From Pochonia chlamydosporia 170 (Eukaryota > Ascomycota > Sordariomycetes > Hypocreales > Clavicipitaceae): a DNA stretch of 64,000 nucleotides. The DNA lies in contig NC_035791.1 of the NCBI RefSeq assembly GCF_001653235.2, positions 6,138,001 through 6,202,000 of the forward strand, written 5' to 3'. The stretch's first letter is position 1. Each line of letters begins with the position of its first letter. Made by a program: the position numbers and the translations under genes. The notes under the pieces were generated by a model that worked only from the letters and a program-made list of their open reading frames with translations, was not told the DNA's origin and ran no database searches. Below are positions 27,390 to 56,706 of this stretch, in pieces.

Positions 27390-29946
27390 ATGCCTGGCAC
27401 TGAGAGGAATCCACAGACCTTGTATGACAAGGTTCTTTCGAATCACATTGTTGATGAGAAGCTCGATGGCACAATTTTGCTGTATATCGGTATGTTGCCT
27501 ATGGACGGGTGCTTGGTTCGCGTGTAAATTGCTGACTCCTGTGGCCGTGTAGACCGACATTTGGTTCATGAGGTGACATCACCTGTATGTTTCTCTGCCC
27601 TACACTATGGACGATGACGGTGAAGTAGCGAAGCGAGATGCTGACTAGTAGTTGTAGCAAGCTTTTGAGGGATTGAAGAATGCCGGCCGAAAAGTTCGTC
27701 GACCAGACTGCACTCTGGCCACGACTGATCACGTATGTTTGGATTGCTGTTCCATGTTCCTCATGGCTGTGGACTGAGTGTTGTGTTTGCTAACGATGAT
27801 GTAGAACGTCCCCACCACTTCAAGAAAAGGCATGAAAGATATTGCCACTTTTATCGAAGAAGACGACTCAAGAACCCAGTGTGTCACCCTGGAAGAAAAC
27901 GTTAAGGACTTTGGCTTGACATATTTCGGCCTCGGCGACAAGCGCCAGGGTATCGTTCACGTCATCGGCCCTGAACAGGGCTTCACTCTGCCCGGAACGA
28001 CGGTCGTCTGCGGCGACAGCCATACCTCCACTCATGGCGCCTTCGGCTCCCTGGCCTTTGGCATTGGTACCAGTGAGGTCGAGCACGTCTTGGCTACTCA
28101 GTGCCTGATTACCAAGCGCAGCAAGAATATGCGAATCCAGGTCGACGGCGAGCTTGCTCCTGGTGTGAGCTCCAAGGACATAATCCTCCACGCTATTGGC
28201 AAGATTGGCACTGCTGGCGGTACCGGTGCCGTTATTGAGTTCTGCGGCTCTGTCATTCGCGGCTTGAGCATGGAAGCTCGCATGTCTATTTGCAACATGT
28301 CGATTGAGGGTGGTGCTCGTGCTGGCATGGTGGCTCCCGATGAGGTCACTTTTGAGTACCTCAAGGGCCGTCCCTTGGCGCCGAAATATGGCTCCGAAGA
28401 GTGGAACAGAGCAACTGCTTACTGGAAGGCTTTGCAGTCCGACCCCGGCGCAAAGTACGACATTGATATCTTTATTGATGGCAAGGACATCATCCCAACT
28501 GTCACCTGGGGAACCTCTCCTGAGGATGTCATCCCCATCACCGGCGTCGTTCCTGATCCCGAGACGTTCGCTACTGAGGCTAAGAAGGTTACTGGCCGAA
28601 GAATGCTCGAGTATATGGGTTTGACTGCCGGCACCCCCATGGAGGAGATTGTGGTTGACAAGGTGTTTATTGGATCTTGCACCAATTCTCGTATTGAGGA
28701 TCTGCGCGCTGCCGCCCACGTCGTCAAGGGCAAGAAGGTTGCTTCCAACATTAAGCGAGCTATGGTTGTTCCAGGCTCTGGACTGGTCAAGACCCAGGCT
28801 GAAGATGAGGGTATCGACCAGGTGTTCATCGATGCCGGATTTGAGTGGCGTGAGGCTGGCTGCAGCATGTGCCTAGGCATGAACCCCGATATCCTCGCCC
28901 CTCAAGAGCGTTGTGCCAGTACTTCCAACCGAAACTTTGAGGGTCGTCAGGGAGCTGGTGGCCGAACTCACCTAATGTCTCCCGTGATGGCTGCCGCTGC
29001 CGCCATTGTTGGCAAGCTTGCTGATGTGCGCAAGTTGTCCAACTACACTGCCAGCCCGCATGTAGAGGCTAGCATTACTCCTTCCACACCGCAAAAGGCA
29101 CATATCGACGAAAGGGTCGCCAACGACGCTCACGAGCGCGAAGTTATTGGGGACCAGCCCGAAGACACGGAGCCTCACACCAACACGTCTGTTTCCGGAT
29201 CAAACGGTAGCTCCGCAAGCGCCGGGCTTCCCAAGTTCCTCAGCCACAAGGGCATTGCCGCGCCCATGGACATGGCTAATGTCGACACCGATGCCATCAT
29301 TCCCAAACAGTTCCTCAAGACCATCAAGCGCACTGGCCTGGGCACCGCTCTCTTCCACGCCTTGCGCTACAACCAAGACGGCTCGGACAATCCCGAGTTT
29401 GTCCTGAACAAGGAGCCGTACCGCAACGCGAAAATCCTCGTCTGCACCGGTCCCAACTTTGGCTGTGGCTCATCGCGAGAACACGCCCCCTGGGCTCTCC
29501 TCGACTTTGGCATCAAGTGTGTCATTGCTCCGTCGTTTGCCGACATCTTCTTCAACAACACCTTCAAGAACGGCATGTTGCCACTCAGAATCGAGAACAA
29601 GAGTGACCTGGACGCGATTGCCGACGAAGCCCGTGCGGGCCGTGAAATCGAAGTCGACCTCCCCAACCAGCTGATCAAGAACTCTGCCGGCGTGACCATC
29701 TGCTCCTTTGACGTGGAGGAGTTCCGCAAGCACTGCCTGGTCAACGGCCTGGATGACATTGGCCTCACCATGCAAATGGAGGACAAGATTGGCGAGTTTG
29801 AGAAGAAGATGACGCAACACACGCCCTGGTTGGATGGCACGGCGTATCTGAAGAGACCTGGTCAGGGGGGGAAATTGGCTGCCAAGGCGGTGCCGGTGCC
29901 CAAGACGAACAGGGGCGAGGAGAAGAAGGAACCGCTGGAGTGGTGA
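27390..29946 (+). CDS. LEU1: 3-isopropylmalate dehydratase, fused large and small subunits
   Basis: Four exons: 27390-27489, 27553-27584, 27658-27732 and 27805-29946, giving 782 aa. All three introns are short and frame-preserving. The enzyme converts 2-isopropylmalate to 3-isopropylmalate, the second step of leucine synthesis. The large-subunit (aconitase) domain comes first, with 4Fe-4S ligands at Cys361 (IGSCTNSR), Cys422 and Cys425 (GCSMCLGMN) and the motif [15 protein letters not shown] ~70-residue polar linker leads to the swivel (LeuD) domain from ~490, with [18 protein letters not shown] and [15 protein letters not shown]. Bacteria split these into LeuC and LeuD; fungi fuse them. The start [19 protein letters not shown] fits the family. 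Confidence 0.97.
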
Positions 29947-33386: not shown

Positions 33387-35665
33387 TTAGCCCTCGTGAT
33401 AATGCAATGGCGCATAAATAAGATGATCAAAGGAGTAGCTCTCATCACTGTCCACCACTCGATTCTGGACATAGCTAGCAGAAACGGGCACCTCGTCGCC
33501 GGGCTCGAATGCACAATTGCCCACGGTAGTTGAACTGAGTATTCCCGCACCAGATATCAGTTCGTCATCGAAATGATGTGCCGCAGCGAACAAGTCTTCC
33601 GCGCCAGTGGCATGATGAGGCACTGTGGTGTTTGAAGGTCCTGGTTGTTTGAGCCTTGCAGCCCTCGCCTTTCTCAACAATCGGTTCAACAACTTATATT
33701 CGAAGTCACGAAGACCGCCGAATTTAGAGCGATGACCAAACTCAATATCATTTGTCTGAGCATCAGTTTGCGACAGAGTGAAGCAGCAGATGTTCAGGAC
33801 GGCATTGATTGCCCTCCATGCTTGCTCAACTAGATCACCTTCTGATCGGGAACAAAGTTCCGTCAATATATAGGCAATTGCATACCACTGCACGTGGGAG
33901 AAACAAAACCAACTCCATCTGGCTGTTGGTTCGCCAGTATACAAAAGAACCTGGGACTCGACAATCGTGATTGACCTGATGAAGAGGCTGTCCTTGATGT
34001 GATCTGGCAGTCCGCCGCAGGTTTCTAGCCGCAGGGACGGATAGTACGCCATGAGCCACATCTTGCCTAGCATTATGCGCGAAATGATGGCAGTGTACCA
34101 ATAGAAAGGGTCAGATGGGTCGTGGCCCGAGAACAGTTTCTGAAGCATGTCTTGGTATTGTAGTATCATGGTGCTGCGTTGTTCCAGGCTCTCTGTGGTA
34201 TGGAGCTTGCCGCATGGTCCGATTGTTCCTGGCGATAGGTTCTGAAGACTTTGAAACACGATTGTTGCGCGGAATTTGACAATGCTAAACGTCATGATTG
34301 TGAAGCTGGCTTTTGGGGCTGGAAACTCCGTCATGCTGGGGGATAAATCTGTATCATTAACATTGAGTGGCATTTGCGCATCATGGCCGATAGCGTGGAT
34401 GGACGTATTATACCCAGAGTCTTCTGCCGCTCGAGCATCGAGAGCACAGATATTCCACCATAGCCGGCGTCTTGTCTCCGTTGTAAATGGTGAGAGACCA
34501 AAGTGCGTTCCGTCGCGATGGACTCCAGTGTTTTGGGCGAGTCGCACAGCCATGGATGTGAGCGACCACATGAGTCGCAAGTTACAGTAGTTTCGAAGGC
34601 TGCTTAAGAATATCGCAAAGGCTTGTAGGACAATGATTTCGTCTGTTTCGAGGAGATGTGCGCGTGCTAGTGCTTGCTCCGTGCCGGCTTTGTACATGCT
34701 GAGGAGACTGCTCTTTTCGGCACCCAGAGTCTTTGGACATTCTTCATCGGAGAGACTGGCTATGGTGGAAAAGTAAATGGCAAATAGGAGCGCTTCAAGT
34801 CCTCGAGGCAAGCCGTCTAATTGACTCCGGTACTGAAGTACAAGTGGTTCGATTGTTGGTATGTGAAGGATTTTGATGACGGGGTCGCAATTTTCTTTGT
34901 ACAGGCGCCAGTACACCATCACCTTGTCCGGTGTTGGATGAAGCTGACGTAGGCTTGAGTAGCAGGGACTGAGACCCAATAGTGAAGTTGTCACCGACTG
35001 ATCGTGTGTTGCATCCTGCATTCTTGGCTCTTCATGATCTTTCGGATCTGTCAGGTCCTCCAATGTGTCTGCCAAGCCATCTACCTAGTCGACAAGGTTT
35101 TAGTCATGTTGACACAGAAAGAACTCGGTTTAAATACATTGTGTCTGCAGTATCAAGGGTTACTTACCTGTTCAGTCAGGTTGGCCCAAAAGTTGCTGAC
35201 AATGTACCTGCTTCGTCCTTCTCCAATTGCGAGTTGTCCGAATTCTGCCTGCAAATCCGCGACGTCATTCTTGTCACCAAGCCCATCATCTTCAGGGTAC
35301 GCATGGGAAAATGGCCGTGTTTGCCCTCTGTTTGACAACTTGTTGTTCTCATCATTACTGCTTGGCTGTCTCAACTCCAATTCTGCTCGTAGTTGCTGAA
35401 CAACGCCTTCAAGATACTTGACCCGTTCCAAGGCACTGGGACCAGAATATTGCCTGGTCGAAGGCTTTCTTGGAGCAAACACACAGTCTGTCCCCGACTT
35501 GCGACAGTTGACACAAGGATTGGTCCTGTCGCACCTTTTCCTCTTTCTGCGGCAGGATAAACAGGAATAGGGCTGCAATCGAGGCGGTTCAGGTTCGCGG
35601 TCAGGTTCAGGTTCAGCCGCAGTCCTGTCCAGTTTGCTCTCCTTCTGTAGAGTTTCGTGGCTCAT
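33387..35665 (-). CDS. Zn(II)2Cys6 transcription factor, probable cluster regulator
   Basis: Two exons on the minus strand, 35665-35168 and 35084-33387, giving 731 aa. The intron runs from GTAAGT to CTAG, with an ATGACTAAA branch region. The start is the ATG of MSHETLQ; upstream the frame has only a TTG. The zinc cluster lies at ~36-62 with perfect CX2CX6CX5CX2CX6C spacing (CLSC...CDRTNPCVNC...C). A leucine-bearing linker helix (ALERVKYLEGVVQQLRAELE) should drive dimerisation. A fungal-specific middle-homology domain fills the rest (VYWRLYKENCDPVIKILHIP; RRRLWWNICALDARAAEDSG). It is divergent from the YcaC-type hydrolase and is the only regulator seen near the NRPS, so pathway control is inferred. 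Confidence 0.93.
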
Positions 35666-37022
35666 GGACGGCAAACTACAGCAACCGAGAGTATTGCTTG
35701 AGTCTCATCTGTCGGATTCGTGCTGCATGCCTGTATCGAAACCGTCTTGGTCGTGGCCGTAAGCAACCCCAGTAAAGAGCTCTGAAGTGGCTTTGGTAAA
35801 ACCTCGGCTGCCCATAACTTGTCTCAATTCTGTAGTTTGGTAGCATTTACATCACACCCCCCCTTTCAATCACACCAGGAACTAAGGCGTTTCAATTCTC
35901 AATTGTACAGCATTGGGGGGGGGGCTTTTCCTCACTACTTTTCGTTTCGAGATTAGATGTGTGTTGTGGGGGATCAGTTTACGGCGTGGGGATATCGGAC
36001 AACTTACTGAACCGACACATCTTTATAATGAGAAACATTTTCTAGTTTCCCAAAATATCCAAATCAATGGCAAAAGTCATCACTCAGTAGTGTAGCTTTG
36101 AGCAGACAGAAACCTCGAAGTTGGCTTTGTAGAAGTATTGGAGAAACGGTGATGGGTTGGCTGATGCGGGGTGAACATCTGCGATGCGGACAGCAGATAC
36201 ATTGACATGGTAAGGATTCGGCTCTTCTCTCTGAACGAGGGAATTCTTTAATTTAGTCTTTGTAAATTATACAGCTATGCCGAAAAAAAAATGACAACAA
36301 TGTGAAGGTGTAAACTGGTGGGTTGTATGATACGGAACACCATTTAGCTTTGAACACATTCTAGTCACTCTAACAGAATTGAGAGGCGTTCAAGGCAAGC
36401 TAAATTTAAAGGAAGTTGGCAAGGAAACGACGGCCATGCTTACCAGATCTTCTCTTTCACCGGTGCTCTTAGATAAACATGTAGCAAGTACTAGGCAACA
36501 TGACAAACCATTCCAAACGAAGCTCTCATCATCTCTGGCAGGTTTCTCCCCCGCTTACAACCGTCAAAGCGGCGGCCGCTAAGCCAGGGCGGAGTCTTGG
36601 CAAAGTCCGCCTGTGTTGCAAGTCATCAAGTGGAATATTCTGTCAGCTTTGGCGCCCTGCAGATCTCTTTACATAATGTCCGATGCCAAGCTTGATTCGC
36701 CAGATCCATCTGATGTGATGACAGAGCCTCATCTTATTAAGATCTTTGGCTGAGCAGAAGTTCCCGTGGCACCGATTTGAATCATTTAAGCAGTTCAATA
36801 TTGGTGCAAATATGTGTCAGGCTGTATTCCTGCTTGGCTATAAAACCCGTGCTCCCGGTTGTATAGCTGTGTTAAACACAGTATTGACTTGGATATCTTT
36901 GTGTTTATTTTTTAACTACAATACCGTATTTGAACTTTGTTAGACATATCAGCAGTACTCTGAGTTCATCCACTTGCTTAAACAACAAGAAACCGAATTT
37001 ACTCTACCAGCCCATAACCACC
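35666..37022. promoter_or_regulatory. Divergent promoter between regulator and YcaC-type hydrolase (1.36 kb)
   Basis: There is no gene here. A C7 run (35857-35863) and a G10 run (35915-35924) lie ~50 bp apart, so a hairpin could form between them. The spacing from either start is loose. The regulator's binding site cannot be named from one sequence. Confidence 0.45.
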
Positions 37023-37643
37023 ATGACCCAAGCTTCATATCCCGGACGCCTCACTCGAGACAATGCCGCTCTACTCATTGTCGACCACCAAGTCGGCTTG
37101 TATAGTGGCGTCCGCGATATCGAGACTCTAGAACTCAAGCACAACATTGTTGGCCTGACAAAAGCAGCCCTCGCTCTTCGCATTCCCATCATCATAACCA
37201 CAACCACCGAAACTTTGTGGGGACCGACAATCCCAGAGCTTACAGAAGCGGTACCCAACTTTAAGCGCATTGAGCGTACAACAGTGAATGCCTGGGATGA
37301 CCCCCGCGTTGTTGCGGCAGTAAAGGAAACAGGCAGGAAGAATCTCATCATCACCGGCATCTCGACAGATGTATGCCTCGCTTTCCCTGCCATGTCGGCA
37401 CGGGCTGAGGGCTATACAACCTATGCAGTTGTTGATGCTTCTGGTGCCTTCACTAAGCGACAAGCGGAAATGGGACTGATGCGCATGGTTCAAGCTGGTG
37501 TTATACCGGTCTGCTACTCAAATGTTGCGGTGGAAATTCTGGCCGATAATGTTGCTGCTGAGTCAAACGACGTTTACACGGCTCTGAGCATGCCGTTTGC
37601 TAGCATTGTCAACGGCATGAACCAGTTCTTTTCACGCAAATAG
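37023..37643 (+). CDS. Isochorismatase-fold cysteine hydrolase, YcaC type
   Basis: A single-exon gene of 206 aa; the frame is open further upstream, but MTQASYPGRL gives the family length. Asp21 (LLIVDHQVG) and the nucleophile Cys118 (GISTDVCLAFPAM) are the catalytic residues. The stretches NAWDDPRVVAAVKETGRKN and YAVVDASGAFTKRQ match the YcaC branch rather than nicotinamidase or true isochorismatase. Substrates of this branch are poorly known; they hydrolyse amide or ester bonds of small molecules. It is divergent from the Zn2Cys6 gene, so co-regulation is likely. It has no signal peptide, so it is probably cytosolic. A tailoring or detoxifying role is inferred. Confidence 0.9.
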   Translation: MTQASYPGRLTRDNAALLIVDHQVGLYSGVRDIETLELKHNIVGLTKAALALRIPIIITTTTETLWGPTIPELTEAVPNFKRIERTTVNAWDDPRVVAAVKETGRKNLIITGISTDVCLAFPAMSARAEGYTTYAVVDASGAFTKRQAEMGLMRMVQAGVIPVCYSNVAVEILADNVAAESNDVYTALSMPFASIVNGMNQFFSRK

Positions 37644-37897: not shown

Positions 37898-38763
37898 CTA
37901 GTGAGAACCATCGGAAGGCTCAAGACATGACTGTGCAGAAGATTTTGCAAGGGAATCGACAGCATCAGCTGTTTCTTTGAGAGCATTCGCAAAAGGGGCG
38001 TGCGAGGCCTTCTCAATTAGCTTTGTGTTTGTAATGCCGGCCGACCCGCAGAGATACTTTTGCGCCTCGAGGGGGAGAATACGATCGCTTCCACACAGAA
38101 TGTAAGCGCTACGTTCGGCATAGTAAGTGTCTAGTAGCGGCGAGTAAGAAACTGGAGTGTTGATCGAACCGAATGCCTGTGGCTTTGTTGTTGATATCCA
38201 TTTCTCTGCAGTGCCTTCGGGAAGGTCGTGGTACATGTACCTTTCTGCGTGTACAAGCAGAATGCGGTCCGTTGATTCCTATATTGATAATGCAAGGTTA
38301 TACACGATTCTATTATTTAACAGCTGACTGACTCCAGACCTACCTCGTATAAACAATGGGGCGGGAGATTGTCAAGAGTCACTCCAAGAATGTCCATCAA
38401 CGACTTGCCAAGGAACGGCGTGACTGCAGTTACGTAGATGAGACCGACTACACCACCTTGCTGACCCGCGGACTTTCTTTCCAGTTTGCTCAGCCCTTGC
38501 ACAGCATTCGAGCCGTATAAACCGCCGTACGAATGCATGGGAAGGATGATGTCCTTGCCCTGGCTAACTAGCGGCATGAGCACATCCTTCCTAAGAGCGT
38601 CCGAGTCCGAGTCTATCGTCATCTGAGAGGCATCTTCAGAGGCAATTCCAGGCGCGTCGTGACCAACGAATGAATGCCCTCTCTCACGCAGAATAGCAGC
38701 AAGATCATCGAAGCAAGAAGCAGGGTGCCACATGCCAGGCACCCCAACTATGACTGGGAGCAT
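37898..38763 (-). CDS. Alpha/beta hydrolase
   Basis: Two exons on the minus strand, 38763-38344 and 38278-37898, giving 266 aa. The intron runs from GTAGGT to ATATAG. The protein opens at once with the fold's first strand (MLPVIVGVPGMWHPASCFDDL), so it has no signal peptide. The nucleophile elbow is HSYGG, in which the usual first Gly is replaced by His-preceding Met (PMHSYGGLYG). The C-terminal catalytic His is in KASHAPFAN. The cap region carries TYYAERSAYILCGSDRILP, the strand with the acidic residue. Similar fungal hydrolases act on small esters, lactones or thioesters, and some are encoded in metabolite clusters. Its place beside the YcaC-type gene and the NRPS makes a pathway role plausible; the substrate is unknown. 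Confidence 0.88.
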
Positions 38764-39443
38764 GAGAGTAGGGGAGCTCAGATGGATAGCAAGTATAGTT
38801 CTTGAAAAAACACGCCAGACAAAAGGTGTCAACGTCGTTGAGATCTCCGACTGCAGCAAGTATAATGAAGGCAAATGAGTGCGGAGTCGCGATGTAGCCA
38901 CGACTATGCAAGTAGCAGTTGTGCCCTGTTCCCTTACCGGAGCGTGTCATACGCATACAGCGATACTTAACCAAACTTATACAAGGCTAAATGAGAGACG
39001 GAAGAAATGGAAAGAAAAGAACTAGAAGGCCTGTAGCCCCTGTAGTGTAAAAGCTCCACCAGCTGAGTCTGAGTGGCGTTCTTCATCGCTCTTTGCCAAG
39101 ACTCCGCTGTTACAATGGAAATTTTGTTCCGTATACTGCCATGTCTCATCAGGCTAAAGTGAAGATATATCATGAGCTTACTTGCAATCGTCAGCATCGC
39201 TTTCCCTTTGAAGTCTACTGCTGATATTGACTCTTAATGCTTACCACGGTTACAAATGGCAAAGAATAATGGCTATTTTTGGGCTTTGCCTCTCGGTAGG
39301 TTCGGGTGACAGAAGATCTAAATTACTGCTGTTTGTACGAATAGGAAGAAAACTATAAAGCCTCGTAGCTGTTGCAAAATACAACGAGTTGTCATGACAT
39401 TTGTTTACAGCATTGACATTTGAATCCCAAAACTCTCATCAAT
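38764..39443. other. Intergenic region (0.7 kb)
   Basis: Upstream flank of both the alpha/beta hydrolase and the small secreted protein gene, which diverge here. A shared promoter is likely. No other gene is seen. Confidence 0.45.
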
Positions 39444-40325: not shown

Positions 40326-43300
40326 TCACCTTCTAACATCGCACAGGGAAGCCAAATCTCGAAGAATCGGGTTTTGGAACACATCCTTGACAGTCAGCTG
40401 GGGGACACCATTTTGTCGAGCTAAACCGACGACTTTCATCGCCCCAATAGAGTCGCCACCGATTCGAAAGAAGTTGTCATCGATGCCGACATTGTCGGCA
40501 TTCACATTGATAGCTTCTACCCATAACTTAAGAACCAACTCTTCCGCGTCTGTACTTGGTGGTCGCCGTTCTTGGTGCATATTACTGAACTCTGCCATTT
40601 GCCGACTCGTGAGTTCGCTTCCGACCTTGCGCAACAGTTTGCGATCAACTTTGCCAGTGTGAGTTCTCTGAATGACTTTTTGTGGAATAAAGACTGATGG
40701 AATCATGTAACTGGGCAGAATGAGACTTAAATGTTCATCTAGTCCAGCTGTGGCTCTTTTCGCTGCAACATCATGGTCCTCTTCGTAGTTTTTGAGAGAT
40801 ATAAAGGCGATCAAGAGGCTCTGAGCTGTTTCTCGTGGTTGAATGACTTCCACAACAACTTGCGCATCTCCCAAAGTGGGATCTAGACCCAAGAGAGTGT
40901 TCCTGACCGCTCGTTCAACCTCTTCCAGTTCGATTCTCTGACCCCGGAGCTTTACCTGTGTGTCCTTTCGTCCTAGGAATCGGAGTGATCCATCCGGAAG
41001 GTATTGAACAAGATCACCTGTTCGATATAGCCTGCCACGCCGTCCTGGCCGCTTACCTGGGATGCCGCGTACCAACCATTCCGGGTCTTGGATGAAAGAC
41101 TTGGACGTCATTTCCTCGTCGAACACATAACCGTCACCAACCAAAGGTCCTTCCACCCAGAGCTCACCCGGAGCACCTACTGGCGCAAGCTTACTCTCAT
41201 TGTCAGGATCGACGATCCATGTGCAAACACCTGCTCCATAGCCAAGACCATCGATGGCCTCTGACAAGTTCAATATTGTTGCTGTTGGTGTGCATTCTGC
41301 TGGACCATAAGCACTGATTACCTTTGTATTTTCGCCGGCAAGTTGACGGTCACTTCGGAGAACGACCTCTCCTCCTAAGATCATTGTAGATAATCGTTCC
41401 AACCCCATGAGGTGACGGGCAACCGATGGGGTCAAGTCTGCCAATGTGATGTTGTACTTTTGCAGTGCTCCGGATAAGTCACACTGCCGCTCCTCCGTGG
41501 AAGGGATACACAAGCAAGCACCTAATTCCAGTTAGATCGGATGGGGCATTAGAGTTAATGGCAATGAAGTGGCTTACCAGTTGTCAGAGTATTCATCATG
41601 TTTGACCAAAATACGTCAAAGGCGTACGAAGAAAAGTCGAGTACCCGAGAGTCGCTTTGGTATCCCAGAGCTTTGCTCTGATGTTTAAGGGCACTAGCCA
41701 TATTTCTATGACTGACCATTACGCCCTTGGGAGTCCCAGTTGAACCTGACGTGAAAATAATGTAAAGTAAGTCCGCAGGACTTACTGTTGGCAACTTCTG
41801 GTTCCCGAGTTGTTCAAAAAACAAGTCAGAGCCAACGACGACGACGTGCTCGCTCAGATTGTCCGCAATATGTCTATTGGAGCTGGAGCACAAAATCATG
41901 GGAGCTTTTACAGTTTGTATAATGCAACGTAGCCTTTCTTCGGGCTGTGTTGCCGTGTCTGTGGCTACTGCCGCAGCGCCGGCCTTCATAACAGCGGCCA
42001 CTGCCACAGGCATCCACATGGATTTCTCAAAAAGAAGTGGGATACAGCTCCCAGGACCGATTCCACACCCAGTGAGTTGCATGGCAAGACGAGTAGAAAG
42101 CTCATCTAGTTGAGAATAAGTTAGATTCCCATCCCAGGCGCAAACAGCCTGTGCCTTTGGTTGTGCGCGAGCCCTGTTGGTGATGAGGTCGTGCATACAT
42201 GCCTCCATAGACTGGGGAACGACAGCATTCCAGTTCCATATATCTTCAATATCCTGCGGGCTGACCAGAGTTAGATCATTGAGCTGGGTTATCCTGGAGT
42301 CAGGATCGAGGAGTTGGCGCAAAATAATTCCCAACTGATGAGCAAGACGCAACACTTGCTGGTTATCCAATATGCTGCAGTCATGGCTAAATGTAAGGTT
42401 TGTGTCGGTCTCATTGATATAGCACGAGACAAATAACGCATGATGGCCATGACTTTGAGCTCGAGCTTTTGTTGCCGGTTGTTGCTCCATGTGTATAATA
42501 GTCTGGAATTGAGCAGCCAGAGCAGCTTCCTCACTCATAGACATGATCCGGCAGAGACCAGTGTGCTCAAAGTGACGTAAAGAACGGGATTGGAGCTGAA
42601 TGTCGTAGAGAAAGCCGTCGATGGTCATCTCAGGGGTCAGTGGGATGCGAATTGGAAACTGAGCGGTATTGTTGCTGGCAATAGCACCGAATATTGCTTC
42701 GTTGGAACCAACCATATGTGATGCCAGAATTGCCCACCCTCCCCTAACAATAGTTTCCGCAGAGAACTCTGCTTTGGTTGAGAAATTCAGCCCCGATATT
42801 TTGAAATGCACCTCGTTGTCGATATTTGGTTGGACATCAGCCTCAATAGATGGGAAGTGGGAGTTTTCAATATTTGCAAACTGATCTCCCCAGAACTGTT
42901 GTGTAGAAGCTTCGTCTTGACCAACAGTCTGCTTGAAGAAATTACTAGCGAGAGTAGTTACTTGGTTGTTGTTTTGCGCATCCCCTCTGCCTGTGTCTAG
43001 CAGATGACGGGTGGCCTTCGTGAAAACATTCGCAGCTTCTCGAGCAATATGCTCTGGGACATACGGTTGATGATACTCCATTAATATTCCCATATTGTCT
43101 CCATCGATAAGCGCACTAAGGCCAATATCGAACTCATGGGGATCTTCTCCTCCTTGCGGTTCCATAGTAAGGTTAGGAACTTTTTCCATGTCCATCTTGT
43201 CGGCTCCCCGAATTGACAACGCAGTGTTGAAGAGCCTCTTAGAAAGCCCAAGATGGTGCTGGATATCTGCGAGAGAGATATGTTGGATTGCTAAGTGATT

Positions 43301-46300
43301 TATTGAGTTTTGAGACGTTTGTCGAAGCACTTCCTCAGGAGGGAGACGTAAATTGACGCGACTAATAAGCAGATTGGCCAGAGGACCAACCATGGTGTCT
43401 ACACCTTCGACTGGTATATCTCGCCCATTGCAGAGATATCCGAAACAGACGTCATCGCGGCCTGTAAAATGAGAGAGCACCATGGACCAAGCAACCTGTA
43501 TAAATACAGATCGGGTAATGCCGATATCTCTACAGAACTCTGCGACCCCATCGATAGCACTAGCGGAGATGGAAATTTGCCCAGAGCTCTCTGTGCAAGT
43601 CCTGGTGAGACCTCGCAAAGAGATGGGAAACTCGCAGGGCTGCACTCCTTGGAGCAATTTGGCCCAAGCTGTTATCCTTTGTGTCTTGGAAATGCCAGAC
43701 AAGTACCGAATCATCTCCCTAAATGGTGTTCGAGGAGGAATCTCAATGCCATCATAGCCATACAGAACGTCTCGCACAAGACCAAACATGCTGGAGGCAT
43801 CAACGAGGCTGTGGCTAACATCAAGTCGACAAGATACTTCGCCAGTGGACGATTGACAAATGGTGAGTGCATGATTTGGTTCGTTTTCAGCGAATACCGG
43901 CCGGTGCAACTCGGTCAGGACGTCTGTGGGATTCTGATTCCCGGCGTTGAGAATTGTGACGCGAGGTTTGACATTTCTTAAAACAACTTGGATAAACTCT
44001 CCTGTTTCAGGATGGACAGTGAAGATGGATTGCAAGATTGTGTGGTGGTTTACGGCGTCTTCCCATGCTTGGCGGAACTTTGGCACGAGCACAACACCCG
44101 CGTTGGGAGGTGAGACCAATCGCCAGATCGAAACCGTCTCATAAGACGCATTCTCCTTTTGGAAACTAAGCAGAATTCCCTGCTGCAGTGTCGAGCATCC
44201 GTATATATCAACAACATCGCCAGAGTTGATCCCTATACGGAGCAGTTGTTCATTCAGCAGTGTGTCAAGTCCATCGTACGACATATTGAGAAGGGGGAGG
44301 TCAGATAGTGTCAGAACAGGGCCAGACTTCAATAGCTGGTCAACCGTGGACTCAACTTGACGGTGGAATAGACCCGCCCATCCCTGCAGTCGCTCTTGAT
44401 GTTTCATTTTCTCGTGTACGTCGAAGGACACTAGCAGTTCATCGTCCTGAACAGAGGCTTCAATCTCAATTAATGCGAAGCGCCTCGCTGTGGAAGCCAT
44501 TTCTGTAATAGCGCCTGCGCCGTCGTCCAAGTCCGCATGTTTGAACAGACCATCGTCTTTCTCGAGTTGTTGGAACTTGCCCGTAAAGTTGAGCGATATC
44601 TCAGACACCTCATGGCCCTCAAACATGGTGCGGCCAGATTCACTATGATAGCGACATGAGAAATACGGTTGGCCTTTGCTGGGAACTTTCCGTCTGAAAT
44701 CCTTTGCAAGACGAATAGCATGCAAGGCCGAGGTGTTTTGACACACTGGCAATTGTAAGGGATACTGCGTAGTAAACCAGCCGACGGTGGACGAGACGTC
44801 GCAGTGACTCTCATCAAATGGCTCCCTACCATGTCCCTCCAGCCATATAGTCGCTACCTCCCTTTCTGGGAACATCTGAACGAATGTGTAGGCCAAAGTG
44901 CCGATGATGATGTCAAGGGGCTCGGTTCGCAGCGGCCCATTGCAATCGCCAAAAAGTTTTGCGGTACAAGACTTATCAAACCTTAAACTGTAACTCGTAC
45001 AGCCCGCAAATGTGTTTTCTAGCTGGTCAATCCCCCAGAACCCTACTTGAAGCGGTGGTACGTAGTACGGCAAGACGGACAGAGGAGACAGACTCGCTCC
45101 AACTCGAGCTTGACGTCGGCACCATGCACGAAAAGTCATTGTGGGATGAGACATGAGACGCCCGTGGGATATAAAGTCCTCAATGTCACCCCAGATGATT
45201 CGCCAGGACACCAAATCAACCACTGTATGGTGCGCCGAGAGAAGTACCATCTGCTCTCCGTTCGGAACTCTGTAGATATCGCAGGCAAACACAGGACCTA
45301 ACTGGAGATTCATCGTCTCCTGTCGGTGCTGACCAAGTGTGGCAATCTCGGCATGGTTTTGTACCACATGTTCCGTGAAAGCGAAGGACTGGGGGTCATT
45401 TTCATCACATATTTGCTGCATCCAACGTCCGGTGGCTGGGTCTTTCTGGAAGCGACAGCGTAGCATGTCATGTCGACAGACTACAGCATTCAATGCTCTT
45501 TGAAGGAGCTCGAATGAAACGATGCTACTCAGCTTCAATAGAAAGCTTTGGTTCCAGTGATTAAATCCGTCAGGGTAAGTGTTGAAGAACATTTGTTGTA
45601 CTGGAGAAAGGTCAAACGGACCTTCGGCAATATCGTCCTCGTCTCCCAAGTTTTGGATGTCTTCTATCCCGCGTACCGTACATCGACTGGCCAGCTTTTT
45701 GATCGTCGACGCTTGCAAAAGGTCGCTGATGGTAAACGAGATATTGTGAAGCTTGCACTGAGAGACTATCTGCATTGCGGTGATTGAGTCGCCACCTATT
45801 CTTGTAAAATCCTCGTTGACTCCGACATCCTCGACTGGCAAATCCATGACTGACATCCACGACTGTTGAATAATAGCTTCTATGTTGCTAAGTGGCTCTT
45901 CCGGTTCATTCTGTACGTTGCTGGTCTTAGAGTACCGATGATACAACGATTCTCCCATGATGCGAAGAGACTTTCTGTCGGTTTTACCACTTGTAAGCAT
46001 CGGGGGACTAAACATGGGTATAATGGCTGTCGGCATTAAAAAGCGAGGGATTCTGTCCACCAGACGGGTTCTCAGTCCATCAACAAGATCGGCGACAGCT
46101 AATTCATGCGCGTCCTCAGTCATTTGGGAGGCGTCTTGGCCCTTTAGCGTGATGAACACAACGATTGTAAGGGACTGTGACTTCTTCACTTGAATAACCT
46201 CAGCCGTTATGAGAGCAGATACCCCCTCTGGAAGGGCCAGCAGAACGTGCTGCTCAACTTCGCCAAGCTCAACCCTCTGCCCACGGATTTTGACTTGCGT

Positions 46301-49300
46301 GTCCGTTCGCCCAACGTACTGTAGCGAGCCATCTGGACGATATTGGACCATGTCTCCAGTACGGTAGAGTCTTCCTCGACGACCGTGCACTTTGGCGGCA
46401 CCCATGGTCTTTGATGTGCAGCGAGTGAGCCATTCTGGATCTTCAATGAAGGATTTGCTCGTTGCCGATTCGTTATTCAGATATCCTCGACCAACCAAGG
46501 GGCCCTCAACCCAAAGCTCACCGACTTCGCCGAGTTTGCTGGGAGTGTTCGTTTCAGGATCGATTACCCATGTACACACTCCTGCTCCTCGTCCTATAGC
46601 AATATCACCTGGTTTAATCTCAGAAAATGCTACAACTGGGGTACACTCAGCCGGACCATACACATTGAACATTTTGGTTTCACCGTTGACTAGAAATGTG
46701 TCGCCGGGTAGGACAGGCTCGCCGCCAGTGAGGATTGTAGACATCCGTGATAATGCCTTTTCGCCTACAATTCGTGCCACGGATGGTGTAAAGTCAGCGT
46801 GGTTCACGCCATATCGCTCCAAGCAACCTGCAAGATCATTGTCCCTCTCTTCCTGCGAAGGTATGCAGAGGCACCCTCCGGAAGTAAAAGTTTGAATGAT
46901 ATTAGACCAGGCAGGATCAAATGCATAAGATGAGAAGTTGAAAACTCGTGAGGAGGATGAATAGCCCAGTTGGACCTGTTGATAAGTTACAGCTGATGCG
47001 AAATTTGAATGGGTAATCAAGGCCCCCTTGGGAACGCCGGTACTGCCCGAAGTGAAACAGAGATATAATACGTCTGACGGGTCAACAACAGGAAGCGTTG
47101 ATACTGACGGATTCCAATCCTGGTTTGGTCCGACAAGAATGGTTGTATGATTGCCGAGTTGAAAAGAGAGAGACTCATTCGCAATAGATGATAGAACTAG
47201 TGGTGCCTCTGCTTGTGCGATGATGGATCGCAGGCGCTCGAGTGGTTGCGTTGTGTCCAATGCTAAGCATGCAGCACCTGCTTTCATGACGGCCACGGTG
47301 GCGATGGGCATCCAAGCAGACTTTTCAAATACAAGAGGCACAATCTTCCCCTGAACTCCAGTGCCGCATACATGGAGGGCCAACCGAGTCGACATGACGT
47401 CTAGTTGTTCATATGTGAAGTCTCCGTCCCACGCATTGATGGCCGGACGCAAAGGGTTCATCAATACCCTTCGAGTTATCATGTCATGGATACACTCTAG
47501 CGTCGGTAGTGGTACGGTTTCATTCCAACTGAAAGCTTGGCAGATGTGCCATGGTTCACCGTGGAGTAGTTGTAGACTTTGATGGCCAATGTTGCTATCG
47601 TTGAGATGCCGTAGAGCGGAGACGAAGTCATCGATAACAAAATCCATGTGATCCTGAGCAATAACTGTCGAGTCGAACATAACCCGTAAATCAACTCCGC
47701 TGGAGCCCAAAAAACATTCAACCACCACTGGGTACGTGTCTGAGGTTGACCCGGCCTTGTTATCATGGACTTCAGTTAAGAACAGGGAGTCTTCGTCCTT
47801 GCTACTACCCGTGCTACTTGGCTGTATCACCAGTAGTGTCTGAAAATTGCAACCGGTTGCTGCTTTATCACTCATTCGTGCAATCTTCTGCAGACCGGTG
47901 TGTTCATATGAAATCATATCTGCTGTCTGACCTTGCACCATCTCGAGTAGCTGGTTGATGCTTGTATCCCAATCGAATAAAACTGCTACAGGTATTGTTG
48001 CAATGGTCGGGCCTGCAATCAGCTCGATTCCCTCTAAAGCAGCTTGACGACCGGTAACTGTTAACCCAAAGAGAGCTTCGCAGGAACCAGTCGCGTTTGC
48101 AGTAGCAACCGCCCATGCCGCTTTGAGAAGGGTCGCTGGAGTGAAGTCACTATCCCCCCAGCCCATGTCTGAAATGTGCCGTACTTTTTCGCTGTCTGGC
48201 TGTGTATGATGATTTACCAGTACTGGTGGAAAATGTATGCCCTCACTGTTCTCAAACATTGCCGTCCAGAATCGAAACTCTGTATCCACATCCCGATTTA
48301 GCAAATGCTTGATAAACCGGGACATGGGCTGCAATCCAAGACGTGGTTGACCAAAATAAATGTTTTGCACCTCTTTCAAGATAAGGGGCACAGTCCATCC
48401 ATCAAAGAGAGAGTGATGTACCCTCCATACCAGTCTGGTGTTTCCAGAACGTGTAGACCTTACAAGATTGAATATGGAAAGAGGTGTTCCCAATCCCATG
48501 GCAACATCCGTGGTGGAGTCTTGCGTGGAGTCTTGAATGGAGTCTTGCTCATTGATGGTCGTCCACCACAGTCCCTCATCAACGACGACTTGCACCAGAA
48601 TGTGACCCTCCACATGAGGCAAACTGATGATCCTTGTCCGCAAGATAGCATTGGACTCTACAGTCCGAAGCCACGCGGTTTGAAGTAGATCTGCGTCAAT
48701 GTCTGGTCCAACTTGAAAGGTATGCTCGGTCACATAGTTCTCGGGCCGTATCTCAGTGAGAGCTATGAGTCCCTCCTGGAGAGGTGTACAAGGCAGGATA
48801 TCAACCACCTGAGATATTTGGACACCGCACATCTGAGAACTGGCAGCTATTGCCTGTTGTAAGTTAAGCGACGGAGGCAGTAATGAGTATGGATGAACAT
48901 CCACGACGTCGGGCTGAGGGCCGGCACTCAATTCTTTCGGAGCATTTGATGTTCCAGTAGTGCTTGAAGTGTCAACAATGGAAAGATTGTCATCATTTCC
49001 GGATTCAAGCTTTTCGAAGTCAATAAATTGTGTCTTTCTCTCACTGACTTCATGAATATGCTCAGTTTTAGACGGAAAACTGTCTGAACGATCCCCAGCT
49101 GGGCTCGAATCAGGCTGCTTAAGCTCCCATGAGTCTGAAGCCCCATTAGCCCTGGCAAACAGCGTAGAGCTACTTGGTTTGTGACCATTTCGTCCAGTGC
49201 TGCGAAGCTTGGAGAGCAGGCGCCTTGTCTTCCTAAGTTTCACTCTTTCAGGGCGGAGACGGCTCAGACGAGAAAGGAATCCATCTATATAGCGATATGC

Positions 49301-49405
49301 TGAAAATGACCCTCTCGGCCACCGTCTTGAATGAGGACTACCATGCTTGACGGACTTCTTCGAAACACCAACTGAGTTCTTGGTACCTCGCGGTGATGGG
49401 TCCAT
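40326..49405 (-). CDS. Nonribosomal peptide synthetase, C-A-T-E-C-(half C)-A-T
   Basis: Two exons on the minus strand, 49405-41578 and 41521-40326, with a 56-bp intron inside the second adenylation domain; 3007 aa. The start is MDPSPRG (the open frame runs further only to a GTG). Residues 1-190 are basic and Ser-rich. C1 begins at ~200 (VDILPCTPLQEG) with active site HHSLFDGWT at ~330. A1 spans ~640-1150 (FTSGSTGVPKG). T1 is at ~1200 (GGDSITAM). E spans ~1260-1680 (AHHTVVDLVSW, EGHGRE). C2 spans ~1735-2150 with the variant site SHSLVDASS. A half C domain with no HHxxxDG spans ~2157-2390. A2 spans ~2400-2895 (FTSGSTGTPKG), and T2 is at ~2960 (GGDSIGAM). By eye, specificity positions read D-P-S-D-L-G-V-P-V for A1 and D-V-S-D-L-G-A-P-T for A2, so related substrates are likely. 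There is no terminal C, TE or reductase domain. A product with a D residue from A1 is expected. Confidence 0.96.
48515..48550. repeat. 12-bp in-frame minisatellite within the NRPS
   Basis: Three near-perfect 12-bp copies (unit GGAGTCTTGNNN on the plus strand) encode repeats of Gln-Asp-Ser in the first condensation domain, upstream of its active-site motif. The repeat keeps frame and so could vary in copy number without breaking the gene. Confidence 0.85.
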
Positions 49406-51359: not shown

Positions 51360-54300
51360 ATGGAATACTCAATGGAAGCTGAGAGGCAATTTGGGCCCGT
51401 TCTATCCAGCCCAAATGATACGACTTTCGACTTTACTCTGTTATTCGAGGAAGTAATCCTCACGGCCCTTCCCCTGGGCATTGCTCGTACGCTGAATCGA
51501 AACAGAAAAGCACCAGTTACGACTGTGATGTGATGCTAACATTACTGCAGTTCTCTGGTCCGTCCAACGCTTGTGGACGCTCCGGCGAGGCGCGCCCAAA
51601 GTTCGACCATCATGGCTGTTGCCTTCTAAAATGGTGTGATGATAACAAACAAGTGCCTTTCAGTTTTGCCGTCTATGCTGACAAGTTTGGAAAAGGTCGC
51701 CTTCATGAGTTATTCGGCATTGCAGATAGCGGTTTTAGTTCTGTGGGAAAGGAGAAGCCCCCCAAATACTGCATTCACGCTTGCATGCCATGTTTTGGCC
51801 ATTGTCGGTTATATCCTGTTGATGCTAGTCTCATTCTTTGAGCACACACGTTCAATTCGTCCATCTACACTTCTCGTCGTCTACATCGGCCTATCCCTTC
51901 TACTTGACATAGCACAAGTCAGAACACTATTCCTAATCCCCCAGCTGGGTGCCATTCCTCAAGTGTCTCTGTCAAGTTTTGTGGTCAAATTCATCATCCT
52001 TATTCTTGAAGCCTTCGAAAAACAGAGAATGATTCTTCCCGAGTGGAAGACTTCGGCCCCCGAAGCGACAGGTAGCGTTATCAACCGCAGCCTGTTCATC
52101 TGGTTGAACAAGCTGCTCGCCAAAGGTTTCAGAACCGTACTCATCGTCGATTCTTTACCACAACTGGACAACGAGATACTTTCGGCCACGACTCCAAACG
52201 CGCTCATGACCAAATGGAGACGGAGTAGGTCAAACCTAACGAAAGTGCCACTCGTTGCTGACTTCTGCCACAGCTGAGAATCCTGGAAAGAACACTCTCT
52301 TTTGGTTGTACATAAAGCACTACAAGATGCCTATATTGGCTGGTGTTTTGCCACGATTGGCGAATATTGGATTCAATTTCTCGCAACCATATCTCATCCA
52401 ACGTGTCCTCGAGGTTGTCGCCGAACCTAATGAACCAAAGAGAAAGGAGATCGGATACGCGCTAGTGGGTGCGTATGCATTAGTGTATATTGGAATGTCT
52501 GTTAGTAGCACCTTTAGTATCCTCGTAAGCTTCATTCTCACAGTTTCATAGATATCATTCACCGTTTACCAGCACAAGACGTATCGGTTGCTCACCCTGT
52601 ATCGTGGTAGTTTAGTTACCATGGTTTACGACAAGGTGCTTCGCATCACCTCTGGGGCAAACAATGCAGAGGCGGTTACATTAATGAGTGCCGATATAGA
52701 TCGTATCACGGGCAGTATGCATCTAGTTCACGAGCTCTATGCAAGTATCATTGAAGTCGGGATTGCCATATGGCTATTGTACGAGTTTCTCGGTATCGCA
52801 ATGGTGGCCCCAATCGCTTGGATGGCACGTATGTTCTGTTCTTCACCCCCAAGGGCTTCTCTCACGCTAATTGCAATATAGTTTGTCTCCTAGCGGGTGT
52901 TCCGATAGCGAAAGCATCTGCTAATGCACAAATCCCTTGGTTGGAGGCCATTGAAGAGAGACTAGCATCCACAGTCAAGTGCTTAGGTGCCATGAAAGGG
53001 ATCAGAATAACAGGTCTGGCAGACATTATCTCTGCCCAGATAACGGATCTTCGAATGGCAGAAATCCGGGCCTCATGGCGTCACCGATTTCTCAATGTTT
53101 TTATCTTTGTACTGAGTAAGTCTGTCTCAGACGGTTGAAGAGCTTGTCAGCTCAATTTGCTAATACATTACCTTCAGCCCTGTCATCGTCGGGGTTGACT
53201 CCTGTCTGGACGTTTATGACATATATCCTGATTGACAAAGCTACAGGTGGCTCTGGAACTCTGTCAGATGGTGTTGCTTTTGCTACGCTCAGTCTTCTTG
53301 AGCTAGTGGAACAGCCGCTGATGTATGTGATTGAAGGCACAGAAGATGTCAAGACTGTCCTCAACTGCTTTGGCCGCATTCAGGGATATCTGTTGTTGCC
53401 CGAGAGACAAGACTATAGGATTTCACATAATCCATCAAAGTCAAGCTTAGGTGCTCCTGAATCGAGTGAAGAAAAGGAACCTAGGGAGCCTTCTGTGTCC
53501 GTGACTGAGAAGCCGAAACCCATCGTTTCGATCAAAGACGTGGCGGCTAAATACGTCGAAGGAGACCACGTCATTGGCAGCAATTGGACATTTGACATCG
53601 AAAGAGGAAAAGTCACCATGATTTACGGAGTAGTAGGTTGCGGGAAATCTACATTGTTGAAGGTCTTGCTTGGGGAGGTGCCCATTGTCAGTGGCTCTGT
53701 GGCTGTAGACTTCTCTACAGTCTCATACTGCCCTCAGGCACCCTGGTCAAATTGGGGAACTATTCGAAGCAATATTCTTGGAATGTCTGATTGGGACGCA
53801 GAATGGTATAATACGGTAACCAACGCTTGTGCACTGCCGGCAGATTTTGATGAACTACCCAACGGGGACCAAACTCATATCGGCTCAAGAGGCTCCAAGC
53901 TAAGCGGCGGGCAACAGATTCGCCTTTCCCTGGCTCGAGCATTGTATTGTCGAAGCTCGATCCTAATTTTAGATGATGTCGTTACTGGTCTAGACAAAAA
54001 CACCGAACATCACATCCTAAACGCTTTGTTTGGGTCCACAGGGCTATTAAAAAAGTCAACATCGACAAGCATTTTGGCAACTAGTTCTGAGCAACACCTT
54101 CGATTCGCCGACAATGTAATCAGACTTACAAAAACCGGCAACTGCAGCGAGGATGGCACGCTTGTAAAATCGAAGTCTTCCGAGAGAGTGGACGAAGACA
54201 CCATTGTTGACAACACTCCGTCTGAGTTGGACACCTCTGATCCGGAGCTCGAGTTACCGCCGGATGTTATTGAAGAACTAGAAGCTGGTGATAGAGTGGA

Positions 54301-56235
54301 AGCTAGTACTAGCCGAAAAACAGGGGAATGGAGGATTTACGCTTATTATGCGAAAGCTGCTGGGTGGTGGCTAACCGTTCTCTATCTCCTGGCGGTTTGT
54401 GTCTTTGTTTTTGGTTCCACATTCCCATGTAAGTAGATTATTCGACCGGACAGTATTGCCTCTGTTGCTAACTATTTCAGCTGTGTGGGTGCAATGGTGG
54501 ACTAATGCCAACGAGCTTAATCCAGATGAGGAGAGTTCAAATCAGAGGCTGGGCTACTGGCTTGGAGTATATGCAGCCCTGGGGGTTTTTACGGTTATAG
54601 CATGTGCGATTGGGGACTGGTAAGTACCACTGGCCATGTCATTTGCGGAATTCTCAACTTAAATAATGATTGCAGTACTTTCAACCTTGTCGTACTACCC
54701 AGGACGTCGAGAAAATTCCACCGGCTGTTGCTAGATACGAGCATGCGGTATGTATTCGGTTCTCTTAGAACCCGGAGACAAGTGATAGGAACCGGGCTAA
54801 CAAGATACCATGTAGGGCTCACACATCATTCTTTACTTCAACAGATGCCGGAATGACCATCAATAGATTTAGCCAGGACCTAGAGCTCATCGACAACGAT
54901 CTTCCGCAGGCACTCGACTCTACCATATTCCAGTTCTTTGCCACCCTTGCGTCTGTAGCGCTGATATTTATCGGTGCCAACTACACGGCAGCGGCTATTC
55001 CTGTCTGCTGTGTTGCACTGTTTTTGGTCCAGCTATTTTATCTTCGTACTTCACGACAGATGCGTATTCTCGACATTCAAGCCAAGGCTCCTCTCTTCTC
55101 GCACTTTATTGATACGGTGCGAGGCGTCGTGCCTCTTCGAGCTTATGGATGGACGCAGCAATACATGAAGCATCACCTTGACGCCCTCAACTGGTCACAG
55201 CGCCCGTATTATCTAATGTTCACCATTCAGAGGTGGCTGATGCTGGTCCTTGATCTTTTCAACGCTGGTTTGGCTATTTTGCTTGTTGCTATAGTCATGT
55301 GTATTCCTAACAGTTCTACCGCTTATCTTGGCGTGGCTCTGTTTAATATCGTATCATTCTCAGCAACTCTGCAGGCTCTAGTGAGTGACTGGATTCAGGT
55401 TGAGACCGCGCTAGGCGCCGTCAGCAGAATCAGAGCATATACCATCAATGTCAAGAGCGAGCACCTCCCTGGCGAGGATGATGATGTGCCCGACGCTTGG
55501 CCGCAAAATGGTGCCATCGTGTTTGATAACGTATCCGCCACTCACAATTCATCTCTGGAGCCGGCTGTCAAAAATATTGACTTGTCCATCCGTGCTGGTG
55601 AGAGAGTTGCGATATGCGGCCGAACAGGCAGCGGCAAATCAACCCTGGCTTACACTTTGATGCGCATGACGGACATCACGGAGGGCAAAATATTAATTGA
55701 TGACATCGATATCAGCACGATACCGCGAGATGAAGTAAGGCAAAGGATCAACGCTTTGCCACAGGAACCCTTCTTCCTCACGGGAAGCGTCCGACAAAAC
55801 CTCGACCCAGGGACATCTGTGAGTGACGAACGTATGATTGAAGCGTTGCGAGAGTTTTCATTGTGGGAACACTTTGAGACTCGAGACGGTCTTGATGGTG
55901 AAATGGATGAGGAAGAACTGTCTCACGGACAGTGCCAGCTCTTCTGCCTTGCTCGAGCTGTTCTGCGACCCGGGAAGATTATGATTCTGGACGAAGCAAC
56001 AAGTAGCATAGACAGTGAAACGGACCACATGGTGCAGCAAGTCCTCGGCAAGGCATTCGAAGGACGTACAGTCATTGCAATCGCACACAAACTGGACACC
56101 ATAATGGAGTTTGATCGAGTCGTCATGATGGATAAGGGCCGCATTGTAGAGATGGGTTCGCCTGGGCAGTTAATGGACACCGAGGACTCAGCATTCCGTG
56201 ACTTGGTTATGCGTGAACTCAATGGGAAGCCTTGA
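51360..56235 (+). CDS. ABC transporter, ABCC (MRP) type full transporter
   Basis: Ten exons: 51360-51486, 51551-51635, 51686-52224, 52274-52500, 52552-52828, 52882-53115, 53178-54428, 54481-54619, 54676-54747 and 54816-56235. They total 1456 aa. The second intron is the least certain border. An N-terminal membrane block (TMD0; FDFTLLFEEVILTALP, SALQIAVLVLW) precedes TMD1, NBD1, TMD2 and NBD2. NBD1 has Walker A GVVGCGKSTLL, signature LSGGQQ and Walker B SILILDDVVTGLD, with Asp where the catalytic Glu normally stands, as is usual for ABCC proteins. NBD2 has GRTGSGKSTL, LSHGQCQ and IMILDEATSSID and should be the hydrolytic site. The motif FTSTDAGMTINRFSQDLELID lies in TMD2. Close fungal relatives export cluster-made metabolites. 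It is divergent from the NRPS, so export of its peptide or self-protection is likely. Confidence 0.95.
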
Positions 56236-56706
56236 GATATTACTATTGAAGCAGATGAATTTTAGATAGATAAAAGAGACTATGTGATGCTTACGAAAAG
56301 TAGTCACTGGACTAGCTATCAGATCCTCTGTTTTGTCACAAAGTCACGGTATAGCCGTCTACAAAGCGAATATGTGCAAATATAACAACAGTTGAGCCCC
56401 TGGCTTGCAGCTGAAACCTCTCGGCCAAATACCTACAACTGCATGATGTGTCAGCATCTGGACAGCATCCTTAAAGTCCTCCCAGGTGACCATTCGTATC
56501 CGTCCCGGCCCAGAAGCGCCACGCGGTGACATGGTGACGCAAGTCTGCTGTTGTCGGGCAGTAAATGGATGTAAATTGCATTTGCTTGGCTCACCCGGGT
56601 GCTGAGAGGGATACACGGGAATTTCTTTTCATTTATAATCTCCCCGAAGCCACTGCTCATCGTCTCCGCGACTTTTCTGACACGGTACTTCACCGTAAAC
56701 TTCGTG
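56236..56706. other. Spacer between exporter and beta-lactamase-fold gene
   Basis: About 470 bp holding the exporter's 3' UTR and the promoter of the next gene on the same strand. No gene is seen. Confidence 0.5.

What the first reader, a model, noticed from the sequence alone, without database searches (positions are those of the whole stretch)
42240..44203. Tandem condensation domains, the second cut in half, between the NRPS modules
Between the epimerisation domain and A2 there is a complete C domain (CSTLQQGILL start, SHSLVDASS site) followed by only the C-terminal half of another (FEHTGLCRIMSMSEEAA...). The half domain resembles the same part of C1 (YEHTGLQKIARMSDKAA), and A2 closely resembles A1. 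This suggests that a C-A block of module 1 was copied and fused behind an existing C domain. Such a join may act as a linker or may alter gatekeeping.
Basis: partly seen in the sequence, partly recalled or inferred. Interest (0 to 1): 0.75.

Follow-up and report, generated by a model that had tools for sequence, protein, structure and literature searches.

The report
Leftover half-domain inside fungal peptide synthetase
A peptide-making enzyme of a nematode-parasitic fungus carries an extra half of a bond-forming domain wedged in front of its second amino-acid-loading domain; the same odd half-domain recurs in related enzymes of many fungi, so it is an old inherited junction rather than a local accident, and it may serve as a mounting plate.

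Summary
The minus-strand NRPS gene (first ATG 49405, one 56-nt intron, stop 40326) reads C1-A1-T1-E-C2-hC-A2-T2. C2 is a complete, E-linked condensation domain. hC is only the C-terminal (acceptor) lobe of another: it starts at the lobe junction, lacks the half with the catalytic His motif, and has lost most of the floor-loop/C5 stretch. The join is not peculiar to this gene. In 231 listed homologues 94 E-C junctions run into hC and 107 straight into A. Of 194 such C domains, all 92 with hC fall in one clade (local support 99), with one exception inside. C2 and hC come from different C lineages (100/100). In this gene's family hC groups near C1-type lobes and A2 beside A1, so a C-A block was duplicated, but long ago; for a second, tetramodular family this is less clear. 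hC keeps normal C-A spacing and is predicted to fold alone. Best reading: a non-catalytic acceptor lobe kept as the seat of A2. Its poor conservation leaves a passive relic as a live rival. New variant of a known kind.

The parts
40326..49405 (-). NRPS gene, first ATG to stop, C1-A1-T1-E-C2-hC-A2-T2, one intron
   Evidence: start codon is the first ATG of the frame, not proven
47564..48826 (-). C1, complete condensation domain (HHSLFDG at 48418-48398)
   Evidence: HMM, coordinates
46013..47494 (-). A1 adenylation domain
45665..45889 (-). T1 carrier domain (GGDSI)
44333..45625 (-).
42980..44233 (-). C2, complete condensation domain of the E-linked type, motif SHSLVDASS at 43816-43790
42275..42949 (-). 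hC, lone C-terminal (acceptor) lobe of an L-type condensation domain; no N-lobe
   Evidence: model matches SrfA-C C domain residues 181-441
42200..42274 (-). hC-A2 linker of normal C-A length, with WNWNAVVP
41578..42199 (-). A2 adenylation domain, first exon part
41522..41577 (-). 56-nt intron within A2 (GTAAGC ... CTAAC ... TAG)
   Evidence: read by eye; reading across it gives TLTTGACLCIP, cf. A1 TFTSGGCLCIP
40683..41521 (-). A2 adenylation domain, second exon part
40329..40553 (-). T2 carrier domain, last domain; no release domain follows in the frame

Best explanation
The stretch is an inherited junction, E-C(E-linked type)-hC-A, of a large clade of ascomycete NRPSs. An ancestral synthetase had a block of L-type C plus A. 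An epimerase with its own D-specific C domain came to stand in front of that block, and the N-terminal (donor) half of the old C domain was lost. C2 now makes the bond between the D-residue on T1 and the residue on T2. hC makes no bonds; it was kept as the part on which A2 sits through the usual short linker. Shown: C2 complete, hC a lone acceptor lobe, different lineages, one clade of hC-linked C2s, normal C-A spacing, loss of the floor loop. Inferred: that C2 is active and D-specific, that hC contacts A2, that A2 needs it, and the order of events.
For: Of 194 E-linked C domains followed by hC or A, all 92 with hC lie in one clade (local support 99) and the label changes twice on the tree. 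C2 and hC belong to lineages parted at 100/100. Internal halves start at profile 157-164, the lobe junction, in 58 of 68 cases. The hC-A linker (67 cases, median 24, 10th-90th percentile 22-24, one outlier of -66) is like the normal T-C-A linker (80 cases, median 25, 23-27). The floor-loop/C5 stretch is worn: GR in 52 of 52 C1-type rows but 2 of 40 hC rows; 16 or fewer of its 24 columns filled in 30 of 40 hC rows. hC is predicted with pLDDT over 90 in 16 of its first 23 ten-residue blocks without any N-lobe, and matches the C-lobe of solved C domains; hC-A2 runs along C-lobe-A of solved modules. C2 keeps H150, D154 and S157 invariant in 37 aligned rows.
Against: hC is the least conserved domain: 40-43% identity to P0004, P0006, P0009 where the other domains have 51-66%, and 27 columns conserved at 80% against 66-70 for the same lobe of C2 and C1 types. 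Another 102 E-C units feed straight into A, so hC is not needed in general, and P0073 has lost it or is a faulty gene model. In the careful C-lobe tree the hC rows fall in two groups, 26 and 5; one clade is 8.4 log units worse but not rejected (p 0.25), and the A domains behind hC of the second group also stand apart. The modelled hC-A2 orientation agrees only loosely with solved C-A pairs (best rmsd 6.5-7.6 over 441-451 residues, others up to 9.8), and no interface confidence was returned.
Confidence: 0.55

Rival explanations
1. hC is a passive relic: a spacer that drifted after the N-lobe was lost and persists because removing it cleanly is hard.
For: Lowest conservation of all domains; one apparent loss, P0073; 102 E-C-A units exist without it (their activity was not tested).
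Against: Present in 92 of 93 members of its clade, which by their given names span many ascomycete genera; nearly constant spacing to A; residues invariant in 37 rows, W30, W82, G98, P109 of the hC-A2 fragment; compact predicted fold.
Confidence: 0.28
2. hC takes part in the reaction: it offers a docking face for T2, or its lobe trades places with that of C2, so that it affects which residue is accepted (gatekeeping).
For: C domains have an acceptor carrier site and act as a second filter on the acceptor residue (review PMC11546977, passages); hC sits between C2 and A2, where T2 must pass (inference).
Against: No active-site half; floor-loop motif lost; C2 has its own complete C-lobe. Nothing here tests carrier docking.
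Confidence: 0.13
3. A recent duplication of module 1's C-A block within this gene.
For: hC groups with the C1 type and A2 with the A1 type; A1 and A2 are 52% identical over the first 210 residues.
Against: Each domain is closest to its positional counterpart in other fungi; hC is 26% identical to C1's lobe.
Confidence: 0.03

Closest known systems
Fungal CT-DCL condensation domain (PLoS Comput Biol 2023, PMC10212144; section 1.4 whole and other passages read)
   Same: C2 stands directly behind an E domain and falls with other E-linked fungal C domains; it keeps an HxxxDxxS motif.
   Different: The parts of the paper read do not mention a half C domain behind CT-DCL. Their own subtype HMMs were not run here.
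[quoted passage not shown]
   Same: A truncated C domain held to be inactive. Its place in FmqC was not checked (N-terminal as I recall). Lone-lobe matches directly before A at the N-terminus are also seen here (53 candidates, some weak).
   Different: Here the half domain is internal, behind a complete E-C unit.
XUC exchange unit, CAsub-A-PCP-CDsub (review PMC11546977, passages read)
   Same: Cuts a C domain into donor and acceptor halves and keeps the acceptor half with its A domain.
   Different: XUC, as I recall it, rebuilds one hybrid C domain; here a whole C domain stands in front of the orphan acceptor half. Artificial versus natural.

Membership tests
Fungal NRPS (C-A-T assembly line) | C, A, T domains in order on one chain | tested here: met
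   (A2-T2 partly on a second exon, splice read by eye)
CT-DCL (E-linked fungal C domain), C2 | directly behind an E domain | tested here: met
CT-DCL (E-linked fungal C domain), C2 | subtype-specific C3 motif | tested here: inconclusive
   SHSLVDASS at 43816-43790 fits HxxxDxxS, given for CT domains in PMC11546977; the CT-DCL logo itself (a figure) was not seen, and SHxxxD is given in print for LCL-A
CT-DCL (E-linked fungal C domain), C2 | falls in a clade with other E-linked C domains, apart from T-linked ones | tested here: met
   (100/100)
CT-DCL (E-linked fungal C domain), C2 | condenses a D-donor with an L-acceptor | not testable with these tools
   needs enzyme assay
Complete condensation domain, hC | N-lobe with HHxxxDG/SHxxxD motif | tested here: not met
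   match starts at profile 161, ten residues after C2
Complete condensation domain, hC | C-lobe fold | tested here: met
Complete condensation domain, hC | floor loop / C5 motif | tested here: not met
   window hC has a gap there; GR in 2 of 40 hC rows, 52 of 52 C1-type rows
Canonical C-A platform (hC with A2) | normal linker length and WN motif | tested here: met
   median 24 vs 25 residues; WNWNAVVP in the window, cf. WNATE named in PMC11546977
Canonical C-A platform (hC with A2) | same interdomain interface | tested here: inconclusive
   best rmsd 6.5-7.6 over 441-451 residues against 6oyf, 6p1j_B, 2vsq; others up to 9.8; no interface confidence

The most novel reading that the evidence does not exclude
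The E-C-hC-A junction is nature's own version of splitting a C domain at its lobe boundary: by leaving the acceptor lobe with its A domain as an adaptor, one ancestral event let a ready-made E-C(D) unit be placed before an unrelated A domain, and the orphan lobe has been a functional A-domain seat in many ascomycete lineages ever since.
Probability: 0.33. Interest if true: 0.7.

Novelty: new variant of a known kind. Interest (0 to 1): 0.5.

Why it matters
Fungal NRPS genes of this kind look as if they had two C domains in a row after an E domain; the second is only an acceptor lobe, so they should be read as having one condensation step there. If the lobe supports A2, the junction is a natural, long-tested way of joining an epimerising unit to a foreign A domain, which is the kind of join that NRPS engineers try to make. 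It also gives a clean comparison, since many related synthetases have an E-C unit without the lobe.

Tried and rejected
Two C halves forming one interrupted domain: rejected, C2 covers profile 1-412 alone and hC starts again at 161. Frame break as a broken gene: rejected, it has intron signals and reading across it restores the A-domain core (no RNA evidence). An N-terminal A-T upstream of C1, present in relatives such as P0005: tblastn (E up to 0.01) of the N-termini of six relatives against the window hit C1 with the stretch just before it, A1-T1 and A2-T2, and nothing upstream of 49129. Several origins of the lone lobe: the careful C-lobe tree shows hC in two groups, 26 and 5 rows; the AU test does not reject one clade (31 rows, p 0.25); the C2-type tree favours one origin. 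In the A tree the 35 A domains behind hC do not form one group: 19 sit beside A1 types, 16 elsewhere.

Bias and exceptions: both protein searches were seeded with hC-bearing proteins and list only 120 of 547 and 120 of 438 hits, so 94 to 107 is not a natural frequency. 11 further E-C units were followed by T. 38 E-C domains that ended their sequence (window and own-genome rows included) were not counted as hC or A; many are nameless gene calls that may be cut by an intron near the end of C2, as the paralogue L009 suggests, where the frame changes there (not proven). Of 123 lone-lobe matches that are not first in their protein, 113 are followed by A and 10 by another C-type match; 29 of the 123 are not behind E-C, mostly in Pes1 relatives, where two lobe matches stand between two A domains with no T detected (not resolved). 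Two are T-C-hC-A (P0174, P0183, Cercospora), one T-hC-A. The 53 N-terminal lone lobes were counted only if A followed, and many score just 9-30 bits.

Rows dropped: the C-lobe set was drawn from 55 chosen sequences, window and own-genome pieces included, and filtered for length (153 rows); the careful tree uses 104 of these, after I left out 16 ids (bacterial, long-branched or near-duplicate). hC_P0003_66 is an E-linked-type fragment and was left out of clade tests and counts; hC_P0109_6 was left out. The window's second A2 exon was left out of the A tree, so A2 stands there with 42% of the columns. The tree of 194 C domains is a FastTree tree with warnings about long branches. Structure search with the 894-residue model gave mainly C2 matches, hence the second model. 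The wording of six paper searches on tandem, truncated or partial C domains in fungi brought no description of this junction in the listings and passages I saw; subscription journals are mostly missing, so this does not prove absence. On the second check of this report I corrected the lobe-junction count (58 of 68), limited the A1/A2 claim to this gene's family, and lowered the main odds slightly for that (0.58 to 0.55, novel case 0.35 to 0.33).
Full report
WHERE THIS IS. The 3-isopropylmalate dehydratase encoded at 27832-29946 is 100% identical to that of Pochonia chlamydosporia 170 on a 6,600,061-base contig, the length of the contig C2 on which the window lies; genome size and contig number (44.2 Mb, 49) match the size and scaffold number printed for that strain (PMC13256968, passages). 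It is a nematode-parasitic fungus of the Hypocreales (order recalled). I know of no product of this gene; one paper search on this species and nonribosomal peptides (listing of 8 of 51) was followed up only in two papers' passages.

THE GENE. One minus-strand frame of 2640 codons, 49477-41558, is followed after an apparent break by a 401-codon frame ending at 40329. The break carries GTAAGC, CTAAC and TAG; reading across 41577-41522 gives TLTTGACLCIP, the counterpart of TFTSGGCLCIP in A1. Domains: C1-A1-T1-E-C2-hC-A2-T2. The frame ends on T2; no release domain follows.

HOW WIDESPREAD. A search with residues 1600-2340 gave 547 hits, 120 listed. In these 120 proteins 63 E-C units were followed by hC and 19 by A, one of the 19 (P0078) with a gap of 218 residues that hides an undetected lobe. 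A second search, from a Penicillium relative, gave 438 hits, 120 listed. In all 231 distinct proteins, with an hC profile added, 94 E-C junctions lead to hC, 107 to A and 11 to T; 92 proteins have the first kind, 76 the second, none both. By the names the sources give, carriers of E-C-hC include Drechmeria, Tolypocladium, Hirsutella, Ophiocordyceps, Metarhizium, Cladobotryum, Claviceps, Nemania, Daldinia, Pseudogymnoascus, Monilinia, Aspergillus, Penicillium, Trichophyton and Cercospora (names, architectures), that is several classes of the Pezizomycotina (classes recalled). The same genome has two further genes with it, on contigs C10 and C4; in both the junction crosses a change of frame, and in C4 the second lobe is matched only from position 269. 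The counts are biased towards hC because both queries carry it.

ONE ORIGIN? On a tree of 194 E-linked C domains (92 followed by hC, 102 by A) all 92 lie in one clade with local support 99; the only A-type row inside is P0073. This is a FastTree tree with long-branch warnings. On the careful tree of C-lobes (104 of 153 rows) C2-type rows and C1/hC-type rows are parted at 100/100; hC rows fall in two groups of the latter, 26 and 5 (the 5 from tetramodular synthetases and P0011), and one clade is not rejected (p 0.25). In the A tree 19 A domains behind hC, the window's included, form one group (99) beside 20 A domains behind C1 (93 for both together), while 16 further A domains behind hC lie elsewhere. 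Window hC and A2 are closest to hC and A2 of Drechmeria and Cladobotryum, as C1, A1 and C2 are to theirs.

WHAT hC MAY DO. The spacing from hC to A is much like that of ordinary C-A pairs (medians 24 and 25) and the window's linker keeps a WN motif. hC is predicted as a compact fold without its N-lobe. hC-A2 follows C-lobe-A of solved modules, though with a best rmsd of 6.5-7.6 over 441-451 residues the orientation is not established. Lone-lobe matches are also found at N-termini just before A (53 candidates, counted only where A follows, some weak), and a truncated, presumably inactive C domain is noted for FmqC in print (PMC10212144, legend). Of 123 lone-lobe matches inside proteins 113 are followed by A. 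A lone lobe directly before an A domain fits a seat for A2. Against this, hC is the fastest-changing domain (40-43% to three close relatives, the others 51-66%; 27 well-conserved columns against 66-70), and 102 E-C units do without it.

LITERATURE. PMC10212144 (section 1.4 whole, other passages) defines the E-linked fungal type CT-DCL, to which C2 fits by position and clade. The review PMC11546977 (passages) describes the XUC unit, which keeps the acceptor half of C with A. The passages seen of PMC2823734 and PMC6737921 do not describe this junction; nor did the searches listed under Tried and rejected. Details of floor loop and lobes come from PMC11186497 (passages) and from recall.

VERDICT. 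A real, conserved lone acceptor lobe between a complete E-linked C domain and A2, without the catalytic half. Shown: anatomy, lineages, spread, spacing. Inferred: scaffold function. A passive relic remains possible.

Noticed in passing
window 56599-58380 (+): Beta-lactamase-fold protein in two pieces (PF00144, DUF3471) near an NRPS that ends on a carrier domain; a candidate stand-alone release enzyme, by analogy with penicillin-binding-protein-type thioesterases (recalled).
   Followed up: no
window 51636-56235 (+), 33387-35674 (-), 38317-38901 (-), 36930-37643 (+): ABC transporter pieces, Zn2Cys6 regulator pieces, an alpha/beta hydrolase fragment and an isochorismatase flank the NRPS and may form its cluster.
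   Followed up: partly
L011 (own genome C4:929000-938900) and C4:939122-940168: A paralogous synthetase that seems to have two C-hC-A junctions (the first C lies beyond the locus); relatives P0001 and P0025 start with C-hC, the latter behind a piece of E, as if the gene began by fission inside an E-C-hC-A unit.
   Followed up: partly
P0160, P0165 (Aspergillus, named NRPS1 and Pes1): Between two A domains two lone-lobe matches stand in a row with no carrier domain detected.
   Followed up: no
P0174, P0183 (Cercospora): T-C-hC-A without E: the half lobe may have outlasted the epimerase.
   Followed up: no
own genome C1:412450-439923 (-) and C1:467923-495369 (+): Two open frames of about 10,000 codons with many condensation matches, probably peptaibol-type synthetases (the type is a guess).
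   Followed up: no
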